From: a virus
Virus record (IMG/VR): IMGVR_UViG_3300037285_000011
Coordinates: 1 to 30,654 of that record
Reading direction: 5' to 3' (one strand)
Length of the DNA stretch: 30,654 bases
Shown one piece after another: positions 1 through 29,241 of this stretch (the stretch's first letter is position 1; each line of letters opens with the position of its first letter). Under the pieces are notes generated by a model. The model worked only from the letters and a program-made list of their open reading frames with translations, was not told where the DNA came from and searched no databases. The position numbers and the translations under genes were made by a program.

Positions 1-682
1 CTAGCGTCACTTCGGACATAAAACCTGTCGCTGTGTCTGCTAGTGACCACAAGACTTTCGTAGTCCCTGACTTACCTGCGTATCGAGTAATCGCCCCGCC
101 TAATCTGATTACACTAGTTTCATCCGCATCATATTGATTGCCTGCTTCGGTTGTCACAACAGCGTTAGCAATGAGAGTTTGTCTTTCACGTTTAAATGCT
201 TCAACTGCTTCTGCATCAAGAACTGACTGTGGGATTGGCTCAATCGTTGGTTCCGTTAGCATCAACTCGTCCCAAGGGCTGTAGGTTTCAGTCTCAAATA
301 CAGGCTCAGTTGTGTATGTGATAACAGTTTCAAACGTAGGAACAGTCTCGTACTGAACTTGGTCTTCAAAGGTTGGTACAGTTATGTATTGCATTTGGTC
401 TTCAAAGGTTGGATTACCCTCATCATCTTTTCCTATTTCTACAGAGATAATCCCATCTTCAACTTCCTCTGTACCTACTTCTACAGAAATAGTACCCATT
501 TCAACTTGCTCTGTGCCATTTTCAACTTGTTCGCTGCCTGACTCTACTTCTTGAGTCCCTGTTTGTACTTGTCTTGTGCGAGTTCTGCCCTTGACGATTG
601 GCCCATTAGTGACAGAGCCATCTTCGTTAGTATCAAAGAACTGTATTGTTTCTGCGTCTATTTTTTTATATGTAGTAGTCAT
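1..682 (-). CDS. DUF4376-like tail-fibre-associated protein, C-terminus cut by window edge
   Basis: The frame opens with ATG at 682 and runs off the left edge without a stop, giving 227 visible residues. Two tandem-repeat blocks lie in the N-terminal half: six heptads of the form TxxVExG (residues 43-84), then three to four 12-residue units of the form TFEDQxQYxTVP (residues 92-127 and decaying after). From about residue 155 the sequence looks like a DUF4376 domain, with a FKRERQTLIANAV helix followed by YDADETSVIRLGGAI. DUF4376 proteins usually lie beside tail-fibre genes and may act in fibre assembly. The start overlaps the stop of the upstream 664-residue fibre as TAATG, so translation is probably coupled. 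The domain call comes from motif memory, and the missing C-terminus prevents a length comparison. Confidence 0.7.
   Translation of the reverse strand, partial: MTTTYKKIDAETIQFFDTNEDGSVTNGPIVKGRTRTRQVQTGTQEVESGSEQVENGTEQVEMGTISVEVGTEEVEDGIISVEIGKDDEGNPTFEDQMQYITVPTFEDQVQYETVPTFETVITYTTEPVFETETYSPWDELMLTEPTIEPIPQSVLDAEAVEAFKRERQTLIANAVVTTEAGNQYDADETSVIRLGGAITRYAGKSGTTKVLWSLADTATGFMSEVTL
302..409 (-). repeat. 36-bp tandem repeat coding 12-residue units
   Basis: Three consecutive 12-residue units (residues 92-127 of the left-edge protein) begin TFEDQMQY, TFEDQVQY and TFETVITY and end in VP or EP. A fourth, decayed unit follows with VFETETY. The first two differ at two residues only, so this looks like recent tandem duplication. 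Confidence 0.75.
431..556 (-). repeat. 21-bp tandem repeat coding six heptads
   Basis: Six consecutive heptads (residues 43-84) read TQEVESG, SEQVENG, TEQVEMG, TISVEVG, TEEVEDG and IISVEIG. V, E and G are fixed at positions 4, 5 and 7 in all six. The units are acidic. A regular extended or beta structure is possible but not shown. Confidence 0.75.
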
Positions 683-2676
683 TAGAAGTTCACCGTTATT
701 TTTGAATTATTGGCGTTTTGTCTTAGGTAAAGCGATTCGCCTTTTGTGAGGCCCGATAAGTTTGAAACATCTAAAATGCAAACTTTATTTGAAGATGGAC
801 TTGAAAGTTGTGGAGTAACATTCGCGCCACCTGTGACGGCTTCAAATGCAACAGTGACAATTTCAAAATCGCCTAAGACACTTACTGAATCTGGCGCTAT
901 GACTGAGTTAATTGATAGTGCAAATTTAGCTGAACTACTATTTTGAGCAAACCCTATGGCAATAATGTCATTAGTAGCTGTCCCACCAAACTCATTAAAG
1001 TTAGTGTTGCCTGAGTGAAACACATCAACCCAATCCCCAAAATTACCACTTCCTGATGCTCTAATTTTGGCATTAACAACTGGACTAGTAGAGCAAGCAA
1101 GCTGTGAACTAAACTTGCCGCCATCTGCATTAACGCCTTTTATGTTTATCAGAGAAAACGCACCGTTAAGCCCTTGATAAGGGTTGTCTCCTAGTGTGGG
1201 AGTAGAATGATTAGCTCCATAACCTGTAAATAGCCCCCCTGCAATTAAAGTATCTATATTTACTCCCTTTAAATCAGAGGTAGCGCTGTTTCTATATGGG
1301 CTAATACCAAAATCTAAAGGGTTGACTGAGTTGCCTGAGTCATAACTTAAACGCCAATCTGAAAATTCACTATCTTTAATGACTCTGTGGTACATTTCAA
1401 AACTGTTTCTTTCAATTAACAGTTGTGACCCATACCAAGCGTCAGAAGAAACGACCTCATTCATAATTAACAATGTACCTCTGCTAGAAATATCATTATT
1501 AGGGGCGTTAGAAGTAGATCCGCTTGGTACTGCTATACCGCTGAAATTTGCTTCGTTATAGTCACTAAAAGAGTTATTATTAAACTTAACACCGCCTTCT
1601 ATGCCAATACCAAAATCTAGCGGGTTAACACTGTTTTCAGTATGATAAAGCTCTGCCCAGTTTGTAAAAATTCGAGTGTCAGTTTTGCCTCCGCGTATCC
1701 ACGCTCTTATGTCGCTACCGCTAGTGCCTCGGATTGACAAGAAATCCGTTTGATTCTGTGAGCCTTCTTTTAGTACTAAAGTGCTTACTATTCCGCTGCT
1801 AATTGGTGAGCCTTCTTCCCCACTGTTTGAACCGTACAGTCCAGATTTAGCAATAGTATTAAAGTTTCCAATAGTTACTGCTTGATCGTTAGTTACACCC
1901 AATCCAAAATCTAAAGGGTTGACTGAGTTGCCTGAGTTAAACTCTATATCCCAATCTCCAACCCCTGTATCTTTAATAACACGACTAGCTTTTTTACCAT
2001 TAGCATCAATGTATATTTGAGATATTAAGTTTGAATCGTATCTCCAGACTGCCACTACACCGAACTGAGAAAATCCGTCTGGTCTTAGTCCTGTGTTAGT
2101 ATTTATTACCCTAAAAACTCCCCCTGCAATCGTAAGGTCATCCATTGAAGTTGTTGGTAGGGATGCAATAGTGTTACCCGATATACCTAAACCAAAGTCT
2201 AAAGGATTAGGAAATACTTCAGCATCCCCTAACTTTAACGTGTCCCTCTGAGCAGAGGCTGTACTGTCATTTAAAAAGCTCTTAGCTTGTGTAGTTACCG
2301 TATTAAGCGCATAAGTTGTCGGGCCTGTCCTCTCTAGAAACCCTGTTCCAGATAAATCTTCTATCGCAGAAGTATTAGCTACAACTTGACGAGACTTCTC
2401 TATAGCTCCTGTTAAGCCCTCTATAGAGTTAAAAGCGGAGAGTCTTGCGGTGGTTGTAGCTTCAGGCCAAGGCTGAAAGAGAGTGATAGTAGAGTTTCCG
2501 CTACTGTCTACAAGAGTACCGCTAATAGCTTCTACAGCAGCGAATGTTCCTAGAGTGACTACAGACCCTTGAAAGAGCCTGCTAGTATCTATACTTCCAA
2601 AGACTTCTATTTTAGAGCTTCCATTAGTAGCTTTAGCTGTAGATGCAGTTAGTAGGTGTATTGGGTTAATTGCCAT
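682..2676 (-). CDS. Tail fibre with four pyocin-knob-like repeats
   Basis: This 664-residue protein is probably a receptor-binding fibre. Residues 1-150 look like a fibre attachment and shaft region and end in AKSFLNDSTASAQRDTLKLG, the common AxxxLxxxxAxxxRxTLGLG phage-fibre motif. Four units of 94-108 residues follow, at about 157-250, 251-348, 349-449 and 450-557. Each opens with NPLDFG and closes with W-x-x-x-(F/Y)-x-(S/T)-(G/E)-N, for example DWDIEFNSGN and DWVDVFHSGN. This is the layout of pyocin-knob modules, which form trimeric knobs in R-pyocin and phage fibres. Residues 558-664 form a separate C-terminal domain, presumably distal. An AAGGA site lies 9 nt before the ATG. The gene follows the giant fibre after 12 bp and overlaps the DUF4376 gene downstream. 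The fibre role is well supported; the receptor is unknown. Confidence 0.85.
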   Translation of the reverse strand: MAINPIHLLTASTAKATNGSSKIEVFGSIDTSRLFQGSVVTLGTFAAVEAISGTLVDSSGNSTITLFQPWPEATTTARLSAFNSIEGLTGAIEKSRQVVANTSAIEDLSGTGFLERTGPTTYALNTVTTQAKSFLNDSTASAQRDTLKLGDAEVFPNPLDFGLGISGNTIASLPTTSMDDLTIAGGVFRVINTNTGLRPDGFSQFGVVAVWRYDSNLISQIYIDANGKKASRVIKDTGVGDWDIEFNSGNSVNPLDFGLGVTNDQAVTIGNFNTIAKSGLYGSNSGEEGSPISSGIVSTLVLKEGSQNQTDFLSIRGTSGSDIRAWIRGGKTDTRIFTNWAELYHTENSVNPLDFGIGIEGGVKFNNNSFSDYNEANFSGIAVPSGSTSNAPNNDISSRGTLLIMNEVVSSDAWYGSQLLIERNSFEMYHRVIKDSEFSDWRLSYDSGNSVNPLDFGISPYRNSATSDLKGVNIDTLIAGGLFTGYGANHSTPTLGDNPYQGLNGAFSLINIKGVNADGGKFSSQLACSTSPVVNAKIRASGSGNFGDWVDVFHSGNTNFNEFGGTATNDIIAIGFAQNSSSAKFALSINSVIAPDSVSVLGDFEIVTVAFEAVTGGANVTPQLSSPSSNKVCILDVSNLSGLTKGESLYLRQNANNSKITVNF

Positions 2677-2688
2677 GCGTGTTGTTCC

Positions 2689-5600
2689 TTATCCTAATGC
2701 GTTAAAGTTGACTGTTACGACCTCAGACAAACTTGGAGATACTGTAACTACTGCGGTGGTGTGGACTCCTCCAAAAGTTACATATTTAAGAGCGTTTGGG
2801 GGGTTTTTTGCATTATACCTTACCCAACCTACAAACCTCTGACTTTGACCCTTACTCACACTTTTTAAGTAAGTGGGTGTGTAAGTTAGAGGGTGGGCTA
2901 AATTATAATTATTTAAGTTTCCTGTGTTAGGGGAATTAGGAGAGGAAGATAGGCTGTAATTAAAGAAATCTCCAGAAGAGCCTCCACCAAACCAAACGTA
3001 AGAAATATTAGGAACTATTACGTTGACACTTTTGTAAACAGCGTTTACTGTAAAATCAAATATCTTAACCCACTCCCCTACATTTCCATTATCTCCTCCA
3101 ACATCTAGAGTAGGTATCTGTAGGACGCTAACTACTGTAGTGTCTCCTACTAACTTAGAAGCTTGAACTGTACCTGTAAAATTACCATTTGCAGCTGATA
3201 TATCTCCTGAGAACCTCCCTCCAGCTGCATCTAAATCCCCTGAAAATGTAGAGTCTCCCTCGATGGTGATCCCCTTAGCAACAATACTGCCTCCACTAGT
3301 GGTATAGAAAGCTGCATTGCTACTAGAGATGCTCCCTGTTCCATACCAGAAAGGAAATAAAGGATCTCCTATTACAACTCTTGGAGACCCATTGTCAGCG
3401 GAAGTCCTTAGAATAGTTCCTGTAATGAGTTTACCATCTAGTGCAGTAGTGTCTATCTTAGTAGCTGTTATGGCTCCTGTTTTAATCTTGCTAGCCTCAA
3501 TCGTTCCATCAACTAGAAGCTTGCCATTTGTTTTACGTCTAATAGTTATTGCATCTATCCAGCAATCCCCTTGAGTATTGTCAGCTACTAACTGAAAGGC
3601 ATAAAGTCCTGTGTATCCTGCTTTAAATACGCTATTTCTTATAATTGCAGATAGGCTTGATCCGTTTGGACTAAAGGCTAGACTTCCTAAGTTTGTTCCA
3701 TCAGGCTTTGATATCCTTAGTTTAGAGTTTCCTGCTGTCCCATTCCATGAATTTTGAGACTTAAAAGAAAACTGTAGCTCTATCTCTTCGTCTAACTCTA
3801 AGTGAACTAAGTTTTTTAAAGGTATAGACCTAGTGTTAGGGTTCTGAACAAACCTTAAGCTCTTAGTCCCTTGAAAAGGTTCAAAGGTACTTACAAAGAT
3901 ATTGTTTGGGAACAGTGTCAGATCCCAAGGTATTCTCTCCTCCTCTTCAAAGTCACTACCATCAACTAAGTTAAAAAAGTCTTTTACTATTAGGTTAGCT
4001 GCTGTAATAGTGTTGGCTGCAATTTTATCTGAAGTTATCACTCCTGTAGCTATGGCATCGGCTAATATCGCCCCTGTTTTGATAGCTTCAGACTCAATAG
4101 CACTTGCTTTAATAAGTGCAGCTGTAATCTGATTAGCCCCAATCTTGTCAGAAGTTATAGAATTAGCTATGATCTTATCAGCATTAAGGGTGTTAGCAGT
4201 TATCCTATCTCCGTCTATAGTGTTAGCTGCCATGCTATTAGTTACTACAGAGTTTGCTGCAAGCTTATCTACAGTTATAGCATTAGCTGCTATCCTATCT
4301 GCTCCAATACTGTTAGCTATGATCCTATCGGCACTGATAGTGTTAGCAGTTATCCTATCTCCGTTAACACTATTCGCTACAATCTTATCTCCTTTAATAG
4401 TATTGGCTGCAATTTGATCTGTCGTAATTGTGAGAGCAGCTATTTTTTCAGCTGTGATTGTGTTAGCTGTGATCTTATTAGCATTAAGGGTGTTAGTAGT
4501 TATTCTATCTCCGTTAACACTATTCGCTACAATCTTGTCTCCAACTATACTATTAGCTACAATCTTATCAGCACTGACAGCATTAGTAGCTATCTCATTA
4601 GCTGTGATTGCGAAAGAAGCTATTTTAGCTGTGGTTATGCTATTAGCTGTCAGTTTAGAAGTACTTATGGAGTTTGCTGCTAACTGCCCTGCTGTAATAG
4701 TGTTGGCTGCTATCTGATTAGACGTTATAGAGTTGGCTATTATCTTGTCACCACTGATAGTATTAGCGGCTATCTTGTCTCCCGTAATACTCTCACCTAC
4801 AATCTTGGAGGCGTTTACAGAGTTTGCTGAGAGTTGGTCTGTACCTATCTGACTAGCTCCTATCTTACTAGCTGTAATAGTTCCAGATATTATCCTATCC
4901 GCATTTATAGTATTAACTACAAGTCTATCTCCTTTTATAGAGTTTGCTTGTATGTTTTCTCCTGTGATAGTCTCAGAAGCTATCTGATTGGCTGTTATGC
5001 TGTTAGCTATAATCTTATCTGCTGAAACACTATTAGCAGCAATTTGATTAGCTGTGATTGCTAAAGCCGCTATTTTAGCTGTAGTTATAGAGTTAGCTGT
5101 AATCTTATCCGCTGTAATTGCATTAGCTGCTATTTTATCCGTTGTTATAGCATTAGTAGCTATTTTGTTAGCAGTAATTGCATTAGCTACAATCTTATCA
5201 GCACTGACAGCATTAGAAGCAATTTCATTAGCTGTGATTGCTAAAGCAGCTATTTTAGCTGTAGTTATGCTATTAGCTGTAATCTTGTCAGCTGTTATAG
5301 CATTAGCAGCAATCTCACTAGCGGTAATTGTTAATGCGGCTATCTTACCTGCGGTTATAGCTCCAGTGTTTATCTTACTGCTGGTTATAGCGTTAGCTGT
5401 AATCTTATCAGAGGTTATTGCATTAGACGTAATTTTATCTGCTGTTATAGCGTTAGCTGCAATTTCATTAGCTGTGATTGCTAAAGCAGCAATCTTATTC
5501 GTAGTTATAGCATTAGCTGTAATCTTGTCAGAGGTTATTGCATTAGCAGCTATCTTGCTAGCTGTGATTGCTAAAGCACTAATCTTATTAGCGGTAATTG

Positions 5601-8600
5601 CGTTAGCTATTAGCTTGTCGGTAGTTATCGCATTAGCGGCAATCTCATTAGCGGTAATTGTTAATGCGGCTATCTTAGCCGCTGTCACCGCACTAGCGTC
5701 TAGCTTAGAAGTAGTGATACTCTCAGAAGCGATTTTACCCGCTGTAATTGCATTAGCTGTAATCTTGTCAGAGGTTATTGCATTAGTAGCTATTTTACCA
5801 GCAGTAATCGCGCTAGCTGTAATTTTATTAGAAGTTATAGCATTAGCTGTAATCTTGTCAGAGGTTATTGCATTAGTAGATATCTCATTAGCTGTGATTG
5901 TTAATGCGGCTATCTGACCAGCTGTAATAGAATTTACGACAAGCTTATCTGCCGAGATGGTTTCTGAGGCTATCTCTAAAGCAGTGATAGTTAAAGCTGC
6001 TATCTGATTAGCTGTGATAGTGTTGGCTACTAGCTTATCCGCACCTATACTCTTTGCCAATATCTTGACTGCTGTGATCGCGTTAGTAGCAATCTCTCCA
6101 GCTGTAATTGTAAGTGAGGCTATATCTCCAGCAACAATAGTGTTAGCAGCGATCTTGTCAGAGGTTATAGCATTAGCAGCAATCTTATCGGCAGTAATTG
6201 CGTTAGAGGTGATTTTACTGGCTGTAATACTATTAACAGCTATCTGAGCAGCAGTGATTGTTAATGCGGCTATCTGACCAGCTGTTATGCTATTAGCTAT
6301 GATCTTATCTGCTGAAACACTGTTAGCTTTTATCTCAGCCCCAGTGATAGTTAAAGCTGCTATTTGATTAGCTGTTATTGTATTAGCCACCAACTTATCT
6401 GCTGAAACACTATTAGCTGCAATTTCATTAGCTGTGATTGCTAAAGCAGCAATCTTATTCGTAGTTATAGCGTTAGCTGTAATTTTATCAGAGGTTATCG
6501 CATTAGCAGCAATCTTCTCGGCAGTAATTGCTAAAGCTGATATTTTGTTAGCTGTAATAGCGTTAGCTGTAATCTTATCAGTTGAGATACTATTAGCTTT
6601 TATCTCATCTCCAGTAATACTTAAAGCTGCTATCTGTCCTGCTGTAATAGTATTAGCTACCATCTTGTTAGCTGAGACAGAGTTTGCAGCTATCTGGTTA
6701 GCAGTTATACTGTTAGCTTGTAGCTTAGAAGTACTAATACTATTATCTGTAATGTCAGTCTGTACAATAGGAAACTTGTTTGATAAAACCTGTAAGGTAC
6801 TTGTATTAAGATCCTTTAATTCAATTTCTAAGTCTTGTAAGTCTGTATTTAAGGATTCTAAAGTCTCAGTGTTAAGCGTGTTTAGCTGGGTAGTTAAGTT
6901 TTGTAACTCCAGAGACAGCGCAAGAGAAGTTTCAGTGTTAAGTTCTCTCAGTTCTTCGTCTAATAGCTCTAGAGATGAAGATAGAGTATTTAGTGTGTTT
7001 GTATTAAGAGTTCTTAAGTCTATATCTACTCTTTGCAACTCTAGCTTTAGAGCTGGTAAAGTCTCTGTGTTAAGATCATCTAGAGACTTTAAAGTGTTTT
7101 CTTCAAATAAATTAAACTTCCTTTTTAGAAAATCACTACCTATAGCTGAGTCTATTCTAACGACTTCTGTTTCTAGTATGTTTGCAATACTACCTACTAT
7201 ACCCACTCTCTCATCAAATAAATCTAAACCCTTAAAGTCTTCTTCAAATACCTCTAGCTGTGTTGTCAACTGCCCTAGGTCAACTCTAGTGAGGGAAACA
7301 CTTTCTGTTATAGCGGGGAGTGTATCAGTTTTGAGAGTATTAATCTCAGACGTAGTGGCATCTATTCTTGAGTTAACTTCTGGTATAGTAACATCATTAA
7401 GAGTTTCTATCTCATCCTCGGTATCTTTAACTCTAGAATTAACTGCTGGTAGTGTGACATCATTAAGAGTTTCTATATCACTACTAGCTGTAGAAAGTTC
7501 CTGCTCTAAACTTAATAAGGTTTGGTCTATTACAACTATTTCTGAATTAATATTAGGTATAGTAACATCATTAAGAGTTTCTATATCATCCTCAGTATCT
7601 TTAACTCTAGAATTAACCGCAGGTAAAGTCACTTGATTAAGGTTATCTAAACTGCTCTCTGTAGCAGTAACCTTAGAATTAAGGTTAGGTAGTGTGACAT
7701 CATTAAGAGTTTCTATATCATCACTAGCTATAGAAAGTTCCTGCTCTAAACTTACTAAGGTTTGGTCTATTACAACTATTTCTGAATTAATATTAGGTAT
7801 AGTAACATCATTAAGAGTTTCTATATCATCACTAGCTATAGAAAGTTCCTGCCCTAAAGCAGGGATAATTGTGTTGTTTAAGTTACCTAAGTCTTCTTCT
7901 ACTTCTTCTATTTTTAGAGTTAGGGTAGGTAAGACATTATTGTTAAGGTTTGTAAGATCATCGTTAACTACGCTCAAAGAGGAGTTTATATCAGGTATTG
8001 TAGTGGTATTAAGGACACCTAAATCCTGTTCAACAGTGTCTAGAATGGAGCTTATATTAGGTATTGTAGTGTTATTAAGATTATCAACTATGGAAGTGTT
8101 TGCTGCGATGTCTGAGTCAAAAGTTTCTATATCTAGAGCAAGTTGATTAAGAAAATTACTATTAGAAGCTAAAGTAGAGTTTATCTCTGGTAAAGTTACA
8201 CTGTTAAGTGTGGATAAGTCGGAATTAACTTGTCCTAAAGTAGAATTAACTGCTGGTAGGGTTATAGTATTAAGGGTATCTATATCTTCTTGTGCTGCTA
8301 CCAGAGATAAATTTAGAGCTGGTAATGTTGTATTATTAAAATCGTCTAGATCCTGATTAGCACTATCTAAATCCAATTGTAGTGAAGGTAAGGTGACAGT
8401 GTTTAAGATGTTTAGTGAAGCTTCTGTAGCTAAGATATCCTCTGCTAAGGCAGGCAAAGTTATAGTATTAAGAGACTCTAAATCATCCTCTAAGAGAATT
8501 AAATCTTGTTGCAGGTTACTTAGGTCTACACTATTAAGGTTCTCTAGGTCTAATTGCACTTGTTCTAAGATAATTTGTACATTAGGTAAAACTACATCAT

Positions 8601-9033
8601 TAAGAACTCCTAGGTCAATGTTTAATGCTTTTAGTTCTACGGCATATTTATTATCAGTTATGGCATTAGCAAAGACATTATTTACAGTATCTACTATCCC
8701 TCTTCTAGGATCTTCGTAAACTTCCCCTAGTATATCTATTATCTGAGAATCTATACTCTTTTGAACTAGCTTAGAGTTTATCGCATCAAGCACTTCTTGT
8801 TCTAAGTTTTGTTCAAACTCGGATATAATGTTTGGCCCTATCTGATCTCTGATATTGTCTACAACAAATCCATTATTAGAAGATATAGTATTTGATATTA
8901 AATTCTTAATACTACCAAGATTTATCTTATAATCTATACCAGAGTTAACATCTTTTACATGAAAGATGTGTGTACTATCTCCCACCAAAGTTGCAAGCTC
9001 TGGTAGGGCTGTTAATTCAATTCTTTCTGTCAT
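2689..9033 (-). CDS. Giant repetitive tail fibre, gpJ-like C-terminus
   Basis: This 2114-residue protein is the largest in the window. Residues 1-143 form the N-terminus, presumably the baseplate end. Residues 144-763 carry about 23 copies of a 22-residue unit, LN-x-x-TLP-x-(L/I/V)N-x-x-(L/V)-x5-(D/E)(L/I)-x-x, probably helical with a proline kink per unit. Residues 770-1679 are 91 uninterrupted decapeptides of consensus (K/Q/E)I-x-A-(N/L)-(A/S/T)-(I/V)T-x-(D/N/G), with an Ile every five residues. Residues 1680-2114 begin with NLVDGSDFEEE...W, like a jelly-roll carbohydrate-binding module, then carry GTIEASKIKTGAI and STFSGDLDAAGGRFSGDIS, which resemble the central and C-terminal parts of lambda gpJ-type tail proteins. 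AAGGG lies 7 nt before the ATG. The role as fibre or side fibre is inferred from architecture and position. The decapeptide fold is unknown. Confidence 0.85.
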   Translation of the reverse strand: MTERIELTALPELATLVGDSTHIFHVKDVNSGIDYKINLGSIKNLISNTISSNNGFVVDNIRDQIGPNIISEFEQNLEQEVLDAINSKLVQKSIDSQIIDILGEVYEDPRRGIVDTVNNVFANAITDNKYAVELKALNIDLGVLNDVVLPNVQIILEQVQLDLENLNSVDLSNLQQDLILLEDDLESLNTITLPALAEDILATEASLNILNTVTLPSLQLDLDSANQDLDDFNNTTLPALNLSLVAAQEDIDTLNTITLPAVNSTLGQVNSDLSTLNSVTLPEINSTLASNSNFLNQLALDIETFDSDIAANTSIVDNLNNTTIPNISSILDTVEQDLGVLNTTTIPDINSSLSVVNDDLTNLNNNVLPTLTLKIEEVEEDLGNLNNTIIPALGQELSIASDDIETLNDVTIPNINSEIVVIDQTLVSLEQELSIASDDIETLNDVTLPNLNSKVTATESSLDNLNQVTLPAVNSRVKDTEDDIETLNDVTIPNINSEIVVIDQTLLSLEQELSTASSDIETLNDVTLPAVNSRVKDTEDEIETLNDVTIPEVNSRIDATTSEINTLKTDTLPAITESVSLTRVDLGQLTTQLEVFEEDFKGLDLFDERVGIVGSIANILETEVVRIDSAIGSDFLKRKFNLFEENTLKSLDDLNTETLPALKLELQRVDIDLRTLNTNTLNTLSSSLELLDEELRELNTETSLALSLELQNLTTQLNTLNTETLESLNTDLQDLEIELKDLNTSTLQVLSNKFPIVQTDITDNSISTSKLQANSITANQIAANSVSANKMVANTITAGQIAALSITGDEIKANSISTDKITANAITANKISALAITAEKIAANAITSDKITANAITTNKIAALAITANEIAANSVSADKLVANTITANQIAALTITGAEIKANSVSADKIIANSITAGQIAALTITAAQIAVNSITASKITSNAITADKIAANAITSDKIAANTIVAGDIASLTITAGEIATNAITAVKILAKSIGADKLVANTITANQIAALTITALEIASETISADKLVVNSITAGQIAALTITANEISTNAITSDKITANAITSNKITASAITAGKIATNAITSDKITANAITAGKIASESITTSKLDASAVTAAKIAALTITANEIAANAITTDKLIANAITANKISALAITASKIAANAITSDKITANAITTNKIAALAITANEIAANAITADKITSNAITSDKITANAITSSKINTGAITAGKIAALTITASEIAANAITADKITANSITTAKIAALAITANEIASNAVSADKIVANAITANKIATNAITTDKIAANAITADKITANSITTAKIAALAITANQIAANSVSADKIIANSITANQIASETITGENIQANSIKGDRLVVNTINADRIISGTITASKIGASQIGTDQLSANSVNASKIVGESITGDKIAANTISGDKIIANSITSNQIAANTITAGQLAANSISTSKLTANSITTAKIASFAITANEIATNAVSADKIVANSIVGDKIVANSVNGDRITTNTLNANKITANTITAEKIAALTITTDQIAANTIKGDKIVANSVNGDRITANTISADRIIANSIGADRIAANAITVDKLAANSVVTNSMAANTIDGDRITANTLNADKIIANSITSDKIGANQITAALIKASAIESEAIKTGAILADAIATGVITSDKIAANTITAANLIVKDFFNLVDGSDFEEEERIPWDLTLFPNNIFVSTFEPFQGTKSLRFVQNPNTRSIPLKNLVHLELDEEIELQFSFKSQNSWNGTAGNSKLRISKPDGTNLGSLAFSPNGSSLSAIIRNSVFKAGYTGLYAFQLVADNTQGDCWIDAITIRRKTNGKLLVDGTIEASKIKTGAITATKIDTTALDGKLITGTILRTSADNGSPRVVIGDPLFPFWYGTGSISSSNAAFYTTSGGSIVAKGITIEGDSTFSGDLDAAGGRFSGDISAANGNFTGTVQASKLVGDTTVVSVLQIPTLDVGGDNGNVGEWVKIFDFTVNAVYKSVNVIVPNISYVWFGGGSSGDFFNYSLSSSPNSPNTGNLNNYNLAHPLTYTPTYLKSVSKGQSQRFVGWVRYNAKNPPNALKYVTFGGVHTTAVVTVSPSLSEVVTVNFNALG
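3997..6726 (-). repeat. 30-bp coding repeat, 91 in-phase copies
   Basis: Counting from KLQANSITAN (residue 770) to KIAANTITAA (residue 1679), the protein divides into 91 units of exactly ten residues, with no insertion or deletion over 2730 bp. Ile/Val/Leu occupies unit positions 2 and 7 nearly always, and N or L is usual at position 5. The last few units (LIKASAIESE, AIKTGAILAD) are the most diverged. DNA identity between neighbours is moderate, but some distant blocks are identical. A block at 5453-5511 recurs at 6413-6471, offset by 960 bp or 32 units. Confidence 0.95.
6745..8604 (-). repeat. 66-bp coding repeat, about 23 copies of a 22-residue unit
   Basis: Units such as LNTITLPAVNSTLGQVNSDLST repeat every 22 residues from residue 144 to 763. 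Two units are 36 residues long and include the segment INSEIVVIDQTL. One unit (near residues 276-318) and the stretch around residues 560-610 are irregular. At the DNA level 7448-7590 and 7688-7830 are almost identical (about four mismatches in 143 bp), a recent 240-bp duplication. Confidence 0.85.
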
Positions 9034-9054: not shown

Positions 9055-9786
9055 TTAAGAAATTCTCTTCCACATAAAGACTGTTAGGTATGGAGGTAGG
9101 TTAGATGCTGCGGATATAGACCCTGACATATTATGGCTGTGAGCTTGGTTGCTTCCAATTGTGGCTGTGTTTGCATCTCTGTAAAGGAGCTGGTTATTAT
9201 CATTGTCAGTACCTTGAGAGCCTACACCCGCATTCTCAGATGGTGCTGCTGTCTTTTTGCTGGCTGCGTTTAACCTACTAGAGTTTTCTACATAATAAGC
9301 GTCTTGGTAATCATGGCTGTGAGAGGCTAGCTCGGATACTGTTAGTACATGACCATCTACAGAAAGAGTGTTAGAGTGTGCATGATTCTTATTACCTCCG
9401 CTGCCACCTACTCCATCAAAGTCTGTGTCTGAGGAATCAAAGCCTATTAGAGTTTTTCCTGCTATCCTAGACCAAGTACCTATGCCAAACCTTTCTGCGG
9501 GATCTTGAGGGCTTAACGACAGGTATATAGATCCTACGTGATATATAAGACCTAGTAGAGATTCGCCAGAACCTTGTACAAGATTATCTATTTGATTTTG
9601 TACCTCTAGCAAAGACTCATGAATAGCGTTAAACTGATAATTTACATGAGGTCTTGCTAGAGGCTCCTCTCTAAGAACTCCTTCAGTTTTTATTCCCTCA
9701 GAAGGAGCCACTCTATTAGCAACTCCAGTGACGGGATCATTGGACTCTGTATCTGCCCATCTAGTATTCTCTGTATTAATTGACAT
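9055..9786 (-). CDS. Short collar-type tail fibre with HxH motifs
   Basis: With the start at 9786 this is a 243-residue protein. That ATG has AGGAGGAG five or six bases upstream, whereas an open frame reaching 9888 would overlap the upstream gene by about 90 bp with no comparable site. Residues 84-117 (VGSIYLSLSPQDPAERFG-GTWSRIAGKTLIGFD) and the C-terminal NLPPYLTVFMWKRI are hallmarks of phage collar and baseplate fibre proteins. Three HxH pairs (H135/H137, H156/H158, H216/H218) match the metal-binding motifs of T4 gp12 and gp37 tips, where histidines of a trimer hold iron. It lies between the DUF2612 baseplate protein and the giant fibre. It may be a short fibre or an adaptor that carries the larger fibres. 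Confidence 0.8.
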   Translation of the reverse strand: MSINTENTRWADTESNDPVTGVANRVAPSEGIKTEGVLREEPLARPHVNYQFNAIHESLLEVQNQIDNLVQGSGESLLGLIYHVGSIYLSLSPQDPAERFGIGTWSRIAGKTLIGFDSSDTDFDGVGGSGGNKNHAHSNTLSVDGHVLTVSELASHSHDYQDAYYVENSSRLNAASKKTAAPSENAGVGSQGTDNDNNQLLYRDANTATIGSNQAHSHNMSGSISAASNLPPYLTVFMWKRIS

Positions 9787-12302: not shown

Positions 12303-12998
12303 CTATTTAGGCGGTTTCGTGCTAGTTTCACCAAACTTAACCCCAGCATGTACGTGAGTATTTAAACTTATACCCTTGTCTGTCTTAACATCTCCTCCTG
12401 AAGTTATGTCTCCATCTACTCTAAGACTGCCTGTACATGTGACATCAGAAGCCTGTAAAGTGATAGAAGATGCTATAACCTTTACACTAGTGGCTGCTTC
12501 TACGACTACTTCATTAGGGGAGTCTACTGTAACATCTCCCTCAGAGTTTATAGAGACAGTAGCTCCTTTATACTTTATTTGAAACTTGTCTTTAGACGGT
12601 TTAAGAGTTTCATCGTAAGGGTATAAACAAGGCAGAGCTACAACATCATTACTTGTAAACTTTCGCAAGGTATTAGGGTTTGATACTTTGCCTGTATCCA
12701 TGTAAGACTCTATATCTTCATGGCAAAACATTAATAAAACTGGATCTCCCACTTCAACGGGGAAGGACATAATCCCACCACCAGAGCTAGGGTATATTAA
12801 AGGAACTCTGAAACAGCTTGCCTTCTCCATAGTTAAACCGTCTTTATAAAGAGTGTTTATCTGAGGTTTTACAGTTACAGATTCTATATAGTCTCCTACA
12901 TAGTTTACCTTAGTTATCTTACCCACCGTTTGTGTCTTAAGTGTACTTTTAAGCCTCTCTATGTGAGAGTTTATTACTTCATAACTATTTAAGCTCAT
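12303..12998 (-). CDS. Baseplate spike (gpV / Gp138-N type) with HxH tip
   Basis: This 231-residue protein is the membrane-piercing spike. Residues about 20-130 form an OB-fold-like domain of the Gp138-N/gp45 kind, including YPSSGGGIMSFPVEVGDPVLLMF. Residues 140-210 alternate short V/I-rich strands, as expected of a trimeric beta-helix. Near the C-terminus NTHVHAG (H215, H217) gives the HxH pair that binds iron at the tip of P2 gpV-type spikes. The start overlaps the hub gene stop as ATGA. The assignment rests on domain order, the tip motif and position between hub and gpW-like protein. Confidence 0.85.
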   Translation of the reverse strand: MSLNSYEVINSHIERLKSTLKTQTVGKITKVNYVGDYIESVTVKPQINTLYKDGLTMEKASCFRVPLIYPSSGGGIMSFPVEVGDPVLLMFCHEDIESYMDTGKVSNPNTLRKFTSNDVVALPCLYPYDETLKPSKDKFQIKYKGATVSINSEGDVTVDSPNEVVVEAATSVKVIASSITLQASDVTCTGSLRVDGDITSGGDVKTDKGISLNTHVHAGVKFGETSTKPPK

Positions 12999-29169: not shown

Positions 29170-29241
29170 GATCTTACTTATGATCTTCTTTATGATCTTC
29201 TTTATGATCTTCTTTATGATCTTCTTTATTATCTTCTTAAG
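29170..29241. repeat. 12-bp tandem repeat, six copies
   Basis: Units of GATCTTCTTTAT run in tandem. Four are identical (29182-29229). The first has one change (GATCTTACTTAT) and the last has decayed (TATCTTCTTAAG). The array lies just downstream of the consensus leftward promoter. On the plus strand it reads as repeated MIFF codons after a possible ribosome site. It could be a slippage product, a protein-binding array or part of a small gene. Confidence 0.9.

What the first reader, a model, noticed from the sequence alone, without database searches (positions are those of the whole stretch)
2689..9033. Giant fibre with 91 perfectly phased decapeptides
Seen: from residue 770 to 1679 the protein cuts into 91 ten-residue units with no indel, and Ile/Val/Leu falls every five residues. 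Known: ITxDKI-type repeats occur in phage fibre and gpJ-like tail proteins, usually in much shorter runs. Inference: the pentad spacing recalls pentapeptide-repeat helices but with N/D at i-2 rather than the standard A(D/N)L pattern, so the fold may be a distinct beta-solenoid shaft. If one coil used 20 residues, the shaft would be about 45 coils, near 22 nm.
Basis: partly seen in the sequence, partly recalled or inferred. Interest (0 to 1): 0.65.

Follow-up and report, generated by a model that had tools for sequence, protein, structure and literature searches.

The report
Record-long decapeptide shaft in phage fibre
A virus of bacteria with a contractile tail encodes a 2,114-residue tail fibre whose shaft is built from 93 ten-residue units in unbroken register; the kind of fibre is already known, but this is the longest unbroken run among the relatives sampled, and comparing the relatives shows that the ten-residue unit, not the five-residue one, is the unit that evolution adds and removes.

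Summary
The gene (2689-9033, minus strand, 2,114 aa) carries 91 ten-residue units at residues 770-1679 with no indel. All 182 five-step positions are I/L/V/M (best of 1,000 shuffles: 67), and the register runs unbroken from residue 756 to 1681 (186 positions, 93 decads). It is a tail fibre of a contractile-tailed phage, orthologous in sequence and gene order to gp24 of Alteromonas phage V22, published as a 'central fiber' modelled as a homotrimeric beta-helix. At least 471 viral contigs carry the repeat. Unbroken phase is the norm; the window is the longest of roughly 170 loci measured (next 135 positions, V22 100). I favour a trimeric beta-shaft with one decad per step, on the baseplate periphery, because a separate spike gene fills the centre. 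It probably holds a carbohydrate-binding-like domain away from the virion. The fold is unproven: two low-confidence monomer models disagree. Stalk and shaft lengths scale together. Verdict: real, a record-length member of a known kind.

The parts
2689..9033 (-). giant tail fibre gene, 2,114 aa, orthologue of V22 gp24
8614..9033 (-). conserved N-terminal domain (residues 1-140), probable attachment to the baseplate
   Evidence: 42% identity to V22 gp24, 35 invariant positions in six orthologues; attachment is inferred
6778..8613 (-). stalk (residues 141-752) of 22-residue units with a TLP/TIP motif, probably alpha-helical coiled coil
   Evidence: identity peak at lag 22, hydrophobic period 3.64; helix inferred
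6766..6777 (-). KFPI junction between stalk and shaft (residues 753-756)
   Evidence: conserved in all seven orthologues as KFPI or LFPI
3991..6768 (-). decapeptide shaft (residues 756-1681), 186 unbroken five-step positions, 93 decads
3529..3954 (-). jelly-roll domain (residues 1694-1835), carbohydrate-binding-module-like
   Evidence: pLDDT mostly 62-86; Z about 12 to CBM16/CBM4, 12.8 to Douge gp20
3397..3516 (-). second short decapeptide stretch after the jelly roll (residues 1840-1879, 8 positions)
2692..3396 (-). C-terminal part and tip (residues 1880-2114); similarity to V22 ends at residue 1939
12303..12998 (-). tail spike gene: takes the axial place on the baseplate, which argues that the giant fibre is peripheral
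   Evidence: similar to solved puncturing proteins/spikes, also present in V22
9055..9786 (-). homologue of V22 gp23 with a T4 gp10-like C-terminal domain, directly upstream; possible attachment partner
   Evidence: PF21939 above cut-off; 36% identity to V22 gp23; partner role is inferred
682..2676 (-). second tail fibre, homologue of V22 gp26
   Evidence: 34-45% identity

Best explanation
This is a long tail fibre of a contractile-tailed phage, orthologous to gp24 of Alteromonas phage V22. A conserved N-terminus (residues 1-140) attaches it to the baseplate, probably at the periphery because a separate spike gene occupies the centre. A helical stalk of 22-residue units is joined by a conserved KFPI motif to a rigid shaft of 93 decads. 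I infer that three chains wind together into a beta-rich shaft in which one decad is one step: a short strand K-I-A-A, a turn at N/G/D, a short strand A-I-T, and a turn at A-D-K, with the two isoleucines facing the core. The length is set by how many whole decads the gene carries; copies were gained and lost as whole decads and then kept by purifying selection. The shaft carries a carbohydrate-binding-like domain and a variable tip far from the virion, for contact with surface sugars of the host. Shown: repeat, register, orthology, decad-wise evolution, selection, predicted jelly-roll fold. Inferred: trimer, beta content, place on the baseplate, sugar binding.
For: Register and chance test. 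Orthology and synteny with V22 gp23, gp24 and gp26 and with its tape measure and spike genes. Published trimeric beta-helical model of V22 gp24, whose listed range 457-924 lies within its decapeptide array (array). Carriers of the repeat are annotated as tail fibre, minor tail or host-specificity proteins in most phages. Decad parity constant in 86 arrays. Odd and even decad counts, and indels of 3, 6 and 12 decads between relatives. dN 0.10, dS 1.73. CBM-like jelly roll. Separate spike gene in the window and in V22.
Against: No experimental structure of a long decapeptide array was found; by sequence only a stretch of about 40 residues in orf16 of PDB 9eg4 is similar. My two monomer predictions have low confidence and disagree: one draws a compact beta solenoid, the other an open chain with no strands and one helical turn per decad. 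Neither tests a trimer. The jelly-roll fold also occurs in protein-binding domains, so sugar binding is not shown.
Confidence: 0.62

Rival explanations
1. Each chain folds on its own into a four-sided solenoid like pentapeptide-repeat proteins, 20 residues per coil, giving a rod of about 22 nm.
For: Hydrophobic residue every five residues without exception; one AlphaFold2 model draws a compact all-beta solenoid that loosely resembles the GlmU beta-helix; one relative's short array weakly matches Pentapeptide_4.
Against: That model has pLDDT about 50 in the shaft and rmsd about 12 A to its matches. The two pentads never exchange roles. Orthologous shafts have odd and even decad counts, and a 3-decad indel shifts a 20-residue coil by half a turn. 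No Pfam pentapeptide family matches this protein.
Confidence: 0.15
2. It is a central fibre on the tail axis, as the V22 paper names it.
For: Published name for the orthologue V22 gp24; the jelly roll resembles one in the central fibre of mycobacteriophage Douge.
Against: Both phages have a contractile-tail spike gene for the axial position. The protein has its own fibre-type N-terminus and no hub domain. The paper uses the name also for a podovirus and a siphovirus.
Confidence: 0.25
3. The repeat is a flexible, largely unstructured spacer with little constraint on its sequence.
For: Low complexity, small polar residues; no confident monomer fold.
Against: 186 of 186 hydrophobic positions kept; decad register kept in unrelated phages; dN/dS about 0.06.
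Confidence: 0.08
4. The great length is a metagenome assembly artefact of a shorter array.
For: The record is an uncultivated viral fragment; the nearest relative has about 36 decads.
Against: No exact repeat of 80 bases or more in the gene; the most similar 40-residue copies differ at 12% of bases; the stalk is longer in proportion.
Confidence: 0.04

Closest known systems
gp24 of Alteromonas phage vB_AmeM_PT11-V22 (QHZ59749.1, 1,430 aa), 'central fiber'
   Same: same gene order; same N-terminal domain, 22-residue stalk, KFPI junction, unbroken decapeptide shaft, jelly roll and second short decapeptide stretch
   Different: 50 decads and a 288-residue stalk there, 93 and 612 here; no similarity of the tip after residue 1939
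IMG/VR relative L103 (IMGVR_UViG_3300022822_000112)
   Same: closest orthologue, 61% in the N-terminal domain; 83% over 18 distal decads
   Different: about 36 decads, a 259-residue stalk, no jelly-roll domain
gp94 of Arthrobacter phage Mimi (minor tail protein)
   Same: same decapeptide, very long arrays
   Different: three arrays of 104, 56 and 82 positions separated by other domains
T5 pb4 / DT57C straight fibre
   Same: trimeric fibre with a beta spike (papers read); PB4_spike matches 3 of 33 arrays weakly
   Different: weak sequence link (DT57C chain 8hre at E 3.9); that spike is about 11 nm long and axial
Pfam PF25296 'Decapeptide repeat region' and the DotG/IcmE repeat
   Same: ten-residue repeat with a hydrophobic residue every five residues
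   Different: below curated cut-offs (21.8 of 45 bits; 49.5 of 750 bits); the DotG consensus (AKELKDAGF) differs; the best match covers only repeat positions

Membership tests
V22 gp24-type phage fibre | conserved N-terminal domain | tested here: met
   42% identity to V22, 35 invariant positions in six orthologues
V22 gp24-type phage fibre | 22-residue stalk, KFPI junction and decapeptide shaft in this order | tested here: met
V22 gp24-type phage fibre | position between a gp23 homologue and a gp26-type tail fibre | tested here: met
V22 gp24-type phage fibre | homotrimeric beta-helical shaft | not testable with these tools
   only monomers can be predicted here; the monomer models are low-confidence and contradictory
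Pentapeptide-repeat (quadrilateral beta-helix) proteins | A(D/N)LXX consensus, small residue at i-2 and D/N at i-1 | tested here: not met
   N/D at i-2 and A/S/T or K at i-1; no pentapeptide family in the Pfam scan of this protein
Pentapeptide-repeat (quadrilateral beta-helix) proteins | 20-residue coil | tested here: inconclusive
   odd decad counts and a 3-decad indel speak against it, but no confident fold is at hand
Pfam PF25296 Decapeptide | score above the curated cut-off (45 bits) | tested here: not met
   21.8 bits for the whole protein, 29.5 for a segment
DotG/IcmE of type IVB secretion | full-length equivalog score (750 bits) | tested here: not met
   49.5 bits; best stretch lies in the repeat
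Carbohydrate-binding-module jelly roll (residues 1694-1835) | beta-sandwich fold | tested here: met
   predicted model, Z about 12, rmsd 2.6-2.9 A to CBM16 and CBM4 structures
Carbohydrate-binding-module jelly roll (residues 1694-1835) | sugar binding | not testable with these tools
   the same list holds protein-binding domains such as ephrin receptors

The most novel reading that the evidence does not exclude
The decapeptide shaft is a distinct triple-stranded fold not yet solved as a long array, in which one decad is the helical step and three decads (30 residues) make one turn, so that phages tune fibre length digitally, in whole decads and preferentially in threes, and scale the helical stalk in proportion. 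Support: decad parity never flips; similarity between units is on average highest at lag 3 over 47 arrays (mean z 1.82); the clearest indels are 3, 6 and 12 decads; stalk and shaft lengths correlate. Caveat: block duplication alone also gives lag peaks, other arrays peak at other lags, and the total difference between the window and L103 is not a multiple of three.
Probability: 0.25. Interest if true: 0.6.

Novelty: new member of a known kind. Interest (0 to 1): 0.36.

Why it matters
The decapeptide array is a common low-complexity building element of phage fibres (at least 471 viral contigs, 63 loci in bacterial and archaeal genomes), yet no Pfam family reaches its cut-off on it here and, by sequence search, no long array has a solved structure. 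This record-length array and its shorter orthologues form a natural length series with conserved ends, which makes two questions directly testable: what the shaft fold is, and how fibre length is set. There is also a practical side: such shafts produce sub-threshold matches to the type IV secretion protein DotG/IcmE, which could mislead claims of secretion genes in phages.

Tried and rejected
Pfam, PHROGs and NCBIfam scans: no accepted Pfam or NCBIfam family for the shaft; PHROGs gave several tail-fibre families through the repeat. PDB by sequence with the protein and with two repeat profiles: only orf16 of 9eg4 and the pattern-driven DotG match; the paper behind 9eg4 was not found. Foldseek with the shaft model: no match at E up to 10. 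The GlmU-like match of the other model is rejected as evidence because that model has pLDDT about 50 there. An assembly artefact was considered and judged unlikely. A link between fibre length and tail length: the tape measure is 751 aa here and 645 in V22, far less different than the fibres, so no support. A strict three-decad rule was tested and is only a tendency. A search for relatives with the window's C-terminal part alone found none; an alignment was needed. Papers naming the repeat in phages: none found in the library.
Full report
WHAT WAS CLAIMED AND CHECKED. The finding describes a giant fibre at 2689-9033 with 91 ten-residue units at residues 770-1679. The gene is on the minus strand and encodes 2,114 aa. 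The 91 units are exact: no insertion, no deletion, and all 182 hydrophobic positions are I, L, V or M; the best of 1,000 shuffles of the same composition reached 67. The register runs a little further than stated, residues 756-1681, 186 consecutive positions or 93 decads. Within a decad the consensus is K-I-A-A-N-A-I-T-A-D. In unrelated phages the turn position N is N, G or D.

WHERE IT SITS. The window is a whole uncultivated viral record of 30,654 bases, a fragment. On the minus strand it reads terminase, portal, head protease, sheath, tape measure, hub, spike, baseplate J, DUF2612 protein, a protein with a T4 gp10-like C-terminus, the giant fibre, and a second tail fibre. Alteromonas phage V22 has the same order. 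Pairwise identities are 36% for gp23, 43% over a 766-column alignment covering the later shaft and jelly roll of gp24, 34 to 45% for gp26 and 36% for the spike. The literature calls V22 gp24 a central fibre and reports an AlphaFold model of a homotrimeric beta-helical fibre with a lectin-like head (PMC10579305). So the kind of protein was known before.

ARCHITECTURE. Seven orthologues share one plan: an N-terminal domain of about 140 residues; a stalk with 22-residue units, whose hydrophobic period of 3.64 residues suggests alpha-helical coiled coil (inference); a KFPI or LFPI junction; the decapeptide shaft; then, in five of seven, a sequence that matches the start of the jelly roll; then the C-terminal part. 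The jelly roll of the window, residues 1694-1835, was predicted with pLDDT mostly 62-86 and matches carbohydrate-binding modules of families 16 and 4 at Z about 12 and a domain of the Douge central fibre at Z 12.8. L103 and L107 lack it, so it looks like an optional insert in the decapeptide array. Similarity to V22 ends at residue 1939.

HOW COMMON AND HOW LONG. The repeat is in 88 phage records, at least 471 viral contigs and 63 loci in bacterial and archaeal genomes. Longest unbroken runs: window 186 positions; then 135, 133, 104 (Mimi), 100 (V22); in bacterial and archaeal genomes at most 97, median 18. The fetched viral loci are the best matches to the window's repeat, so their median of 36 is biased upwards. 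Among roughly 170 loci measured the window is the longest; longer ones may exist elsewhere.

WHAT THE UNIT IS. If pentads were the structural unit, five-residue shifts should occur. I scored decad phase along 86 non-redundant arrays with at least 24 positions; none changed phase inside (one ambiguous call at an array end). Orthologous shafts that end in the same sequence have 93, 43, 50, 38 and 32 decads, odd and even. Unit-by-unit alignment gives indels of 6 (L106 against L109), 12 and 6 (V22 against L109) and 3 (window against L103), besides less certain ones and one large block of 53 decads in the window that the alignment could not resolve (gap costs were chosen by hand). Unit similarity peaks at lag 3 in the window (z 4.0; no shuffle of 2,000 reached it) and on average over 47 arrays (mean z 1.82), but individual arrays also peak at lags 1, 2, 4, 5 or 7. 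This is a tendency, not a rule, and block duplication could cause it.

HOW IT GREW. The nearest relative L103 has about 36 decads and a stalk of 259 residues; the window has 93 and 612. Stalk and shaft lengths correlate at r 0.99 over seven orthologues and 0.86 without the window. The seven are related by descent and the smaller set is not significant by rank (p 0.17), so this is a lead. Inside the window the best 40-residue copies are 39 of 40 identical in protein but only 88% in DNA, and 18 orthologous decads against L103 give dN 0.10 and dS 1.73: old duplications, kept by purifying selection. No exact repeat reaches 80 bases.

FOLD. Prediction 1 (residues 1480-2114, 7 sequences) drew the shaft as a continuous beta solenoid at pLDDT about 50. 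Prediction 2 (residues 741-960, 33 sequences, mean pLDDT 60) drew no strands but one short helical turn with a ten-residue rhythm, at T/A-D/N-K, and matched nothing in the PDB. They contradict each other, so neither is evidence for a particular fold. An open chain with a ten-residue rhythm and no internal strands is what one would expect of one chain taken out of an intertwined trimer, but that is my inference. Geometric lengths: about 22 nm for a 20-residue solenoid, about 44 nm for a triple-stranded helix with 30 residues per turn and chain.

AXIAL OR PERIPHERAL. The window and V22 each encode a spike related to solved puncturing proteins. In contractile tails this spike takes the axial position (established knowledge of P2- and T4-like tails). 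I therefore place this fibre at the periphery of the baseplate, against the published name. This is inference; a fibre attached below the spike is not excluded.

VERDICT. Observation confirmed; interpretation partly supported; a record-length member of a known kind of fibre, with an unsolved and now well-delimited structural question.

Noticed in passing
window 3991-6768 (residues 756-1681): The shaft matches the NCBIfam model of the type IV secretion protein DotG/IcmE (E 1.8e-13, far below its cut-off), as do 5 of 33 related arrays. A paper reports frequent icmE/dotG genes in coral phages (PMC11309003); some of these may be tail-fibre decapeptide shafts. Not tested on that paper's data.
   Followed up: partly
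window 682-2676: The gp26-type tail fibre is 664 aa against 369 in V22 and carries several copies of an NSVNPLDFG motif about 100 residues apart, so both fibres of this phage are extended relative to V22.
   Followed up: partly
window 2-682: Open reading frame running off the contig end, in the position of the V22 tail-fibre chaperone; contains short repeats such as VEVGTEEVEDG; similarity to V22 gp27 is not significant.
   Followed up: partly
L107 697-1092: A short reading frame (MKKCKMCEETLPFSKFHA...) lies inside the tape measure region of a V22 relative, possibly a mobile element of HNH type.
   Followed up: no
window 6778-8613: Stalk of 22-residue units with a proline in each (TLP/TIP); near-copies recur 80 residues apart. 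The same unit occurs in orthologues; its structure was not predicted here.
   Followed up: partly
window 29170-29238: Twelve-base tandem repeat GATCTTCTTTAT, 5.8 copies at 94% matches, outside the fibre gene.
   Followed up: no
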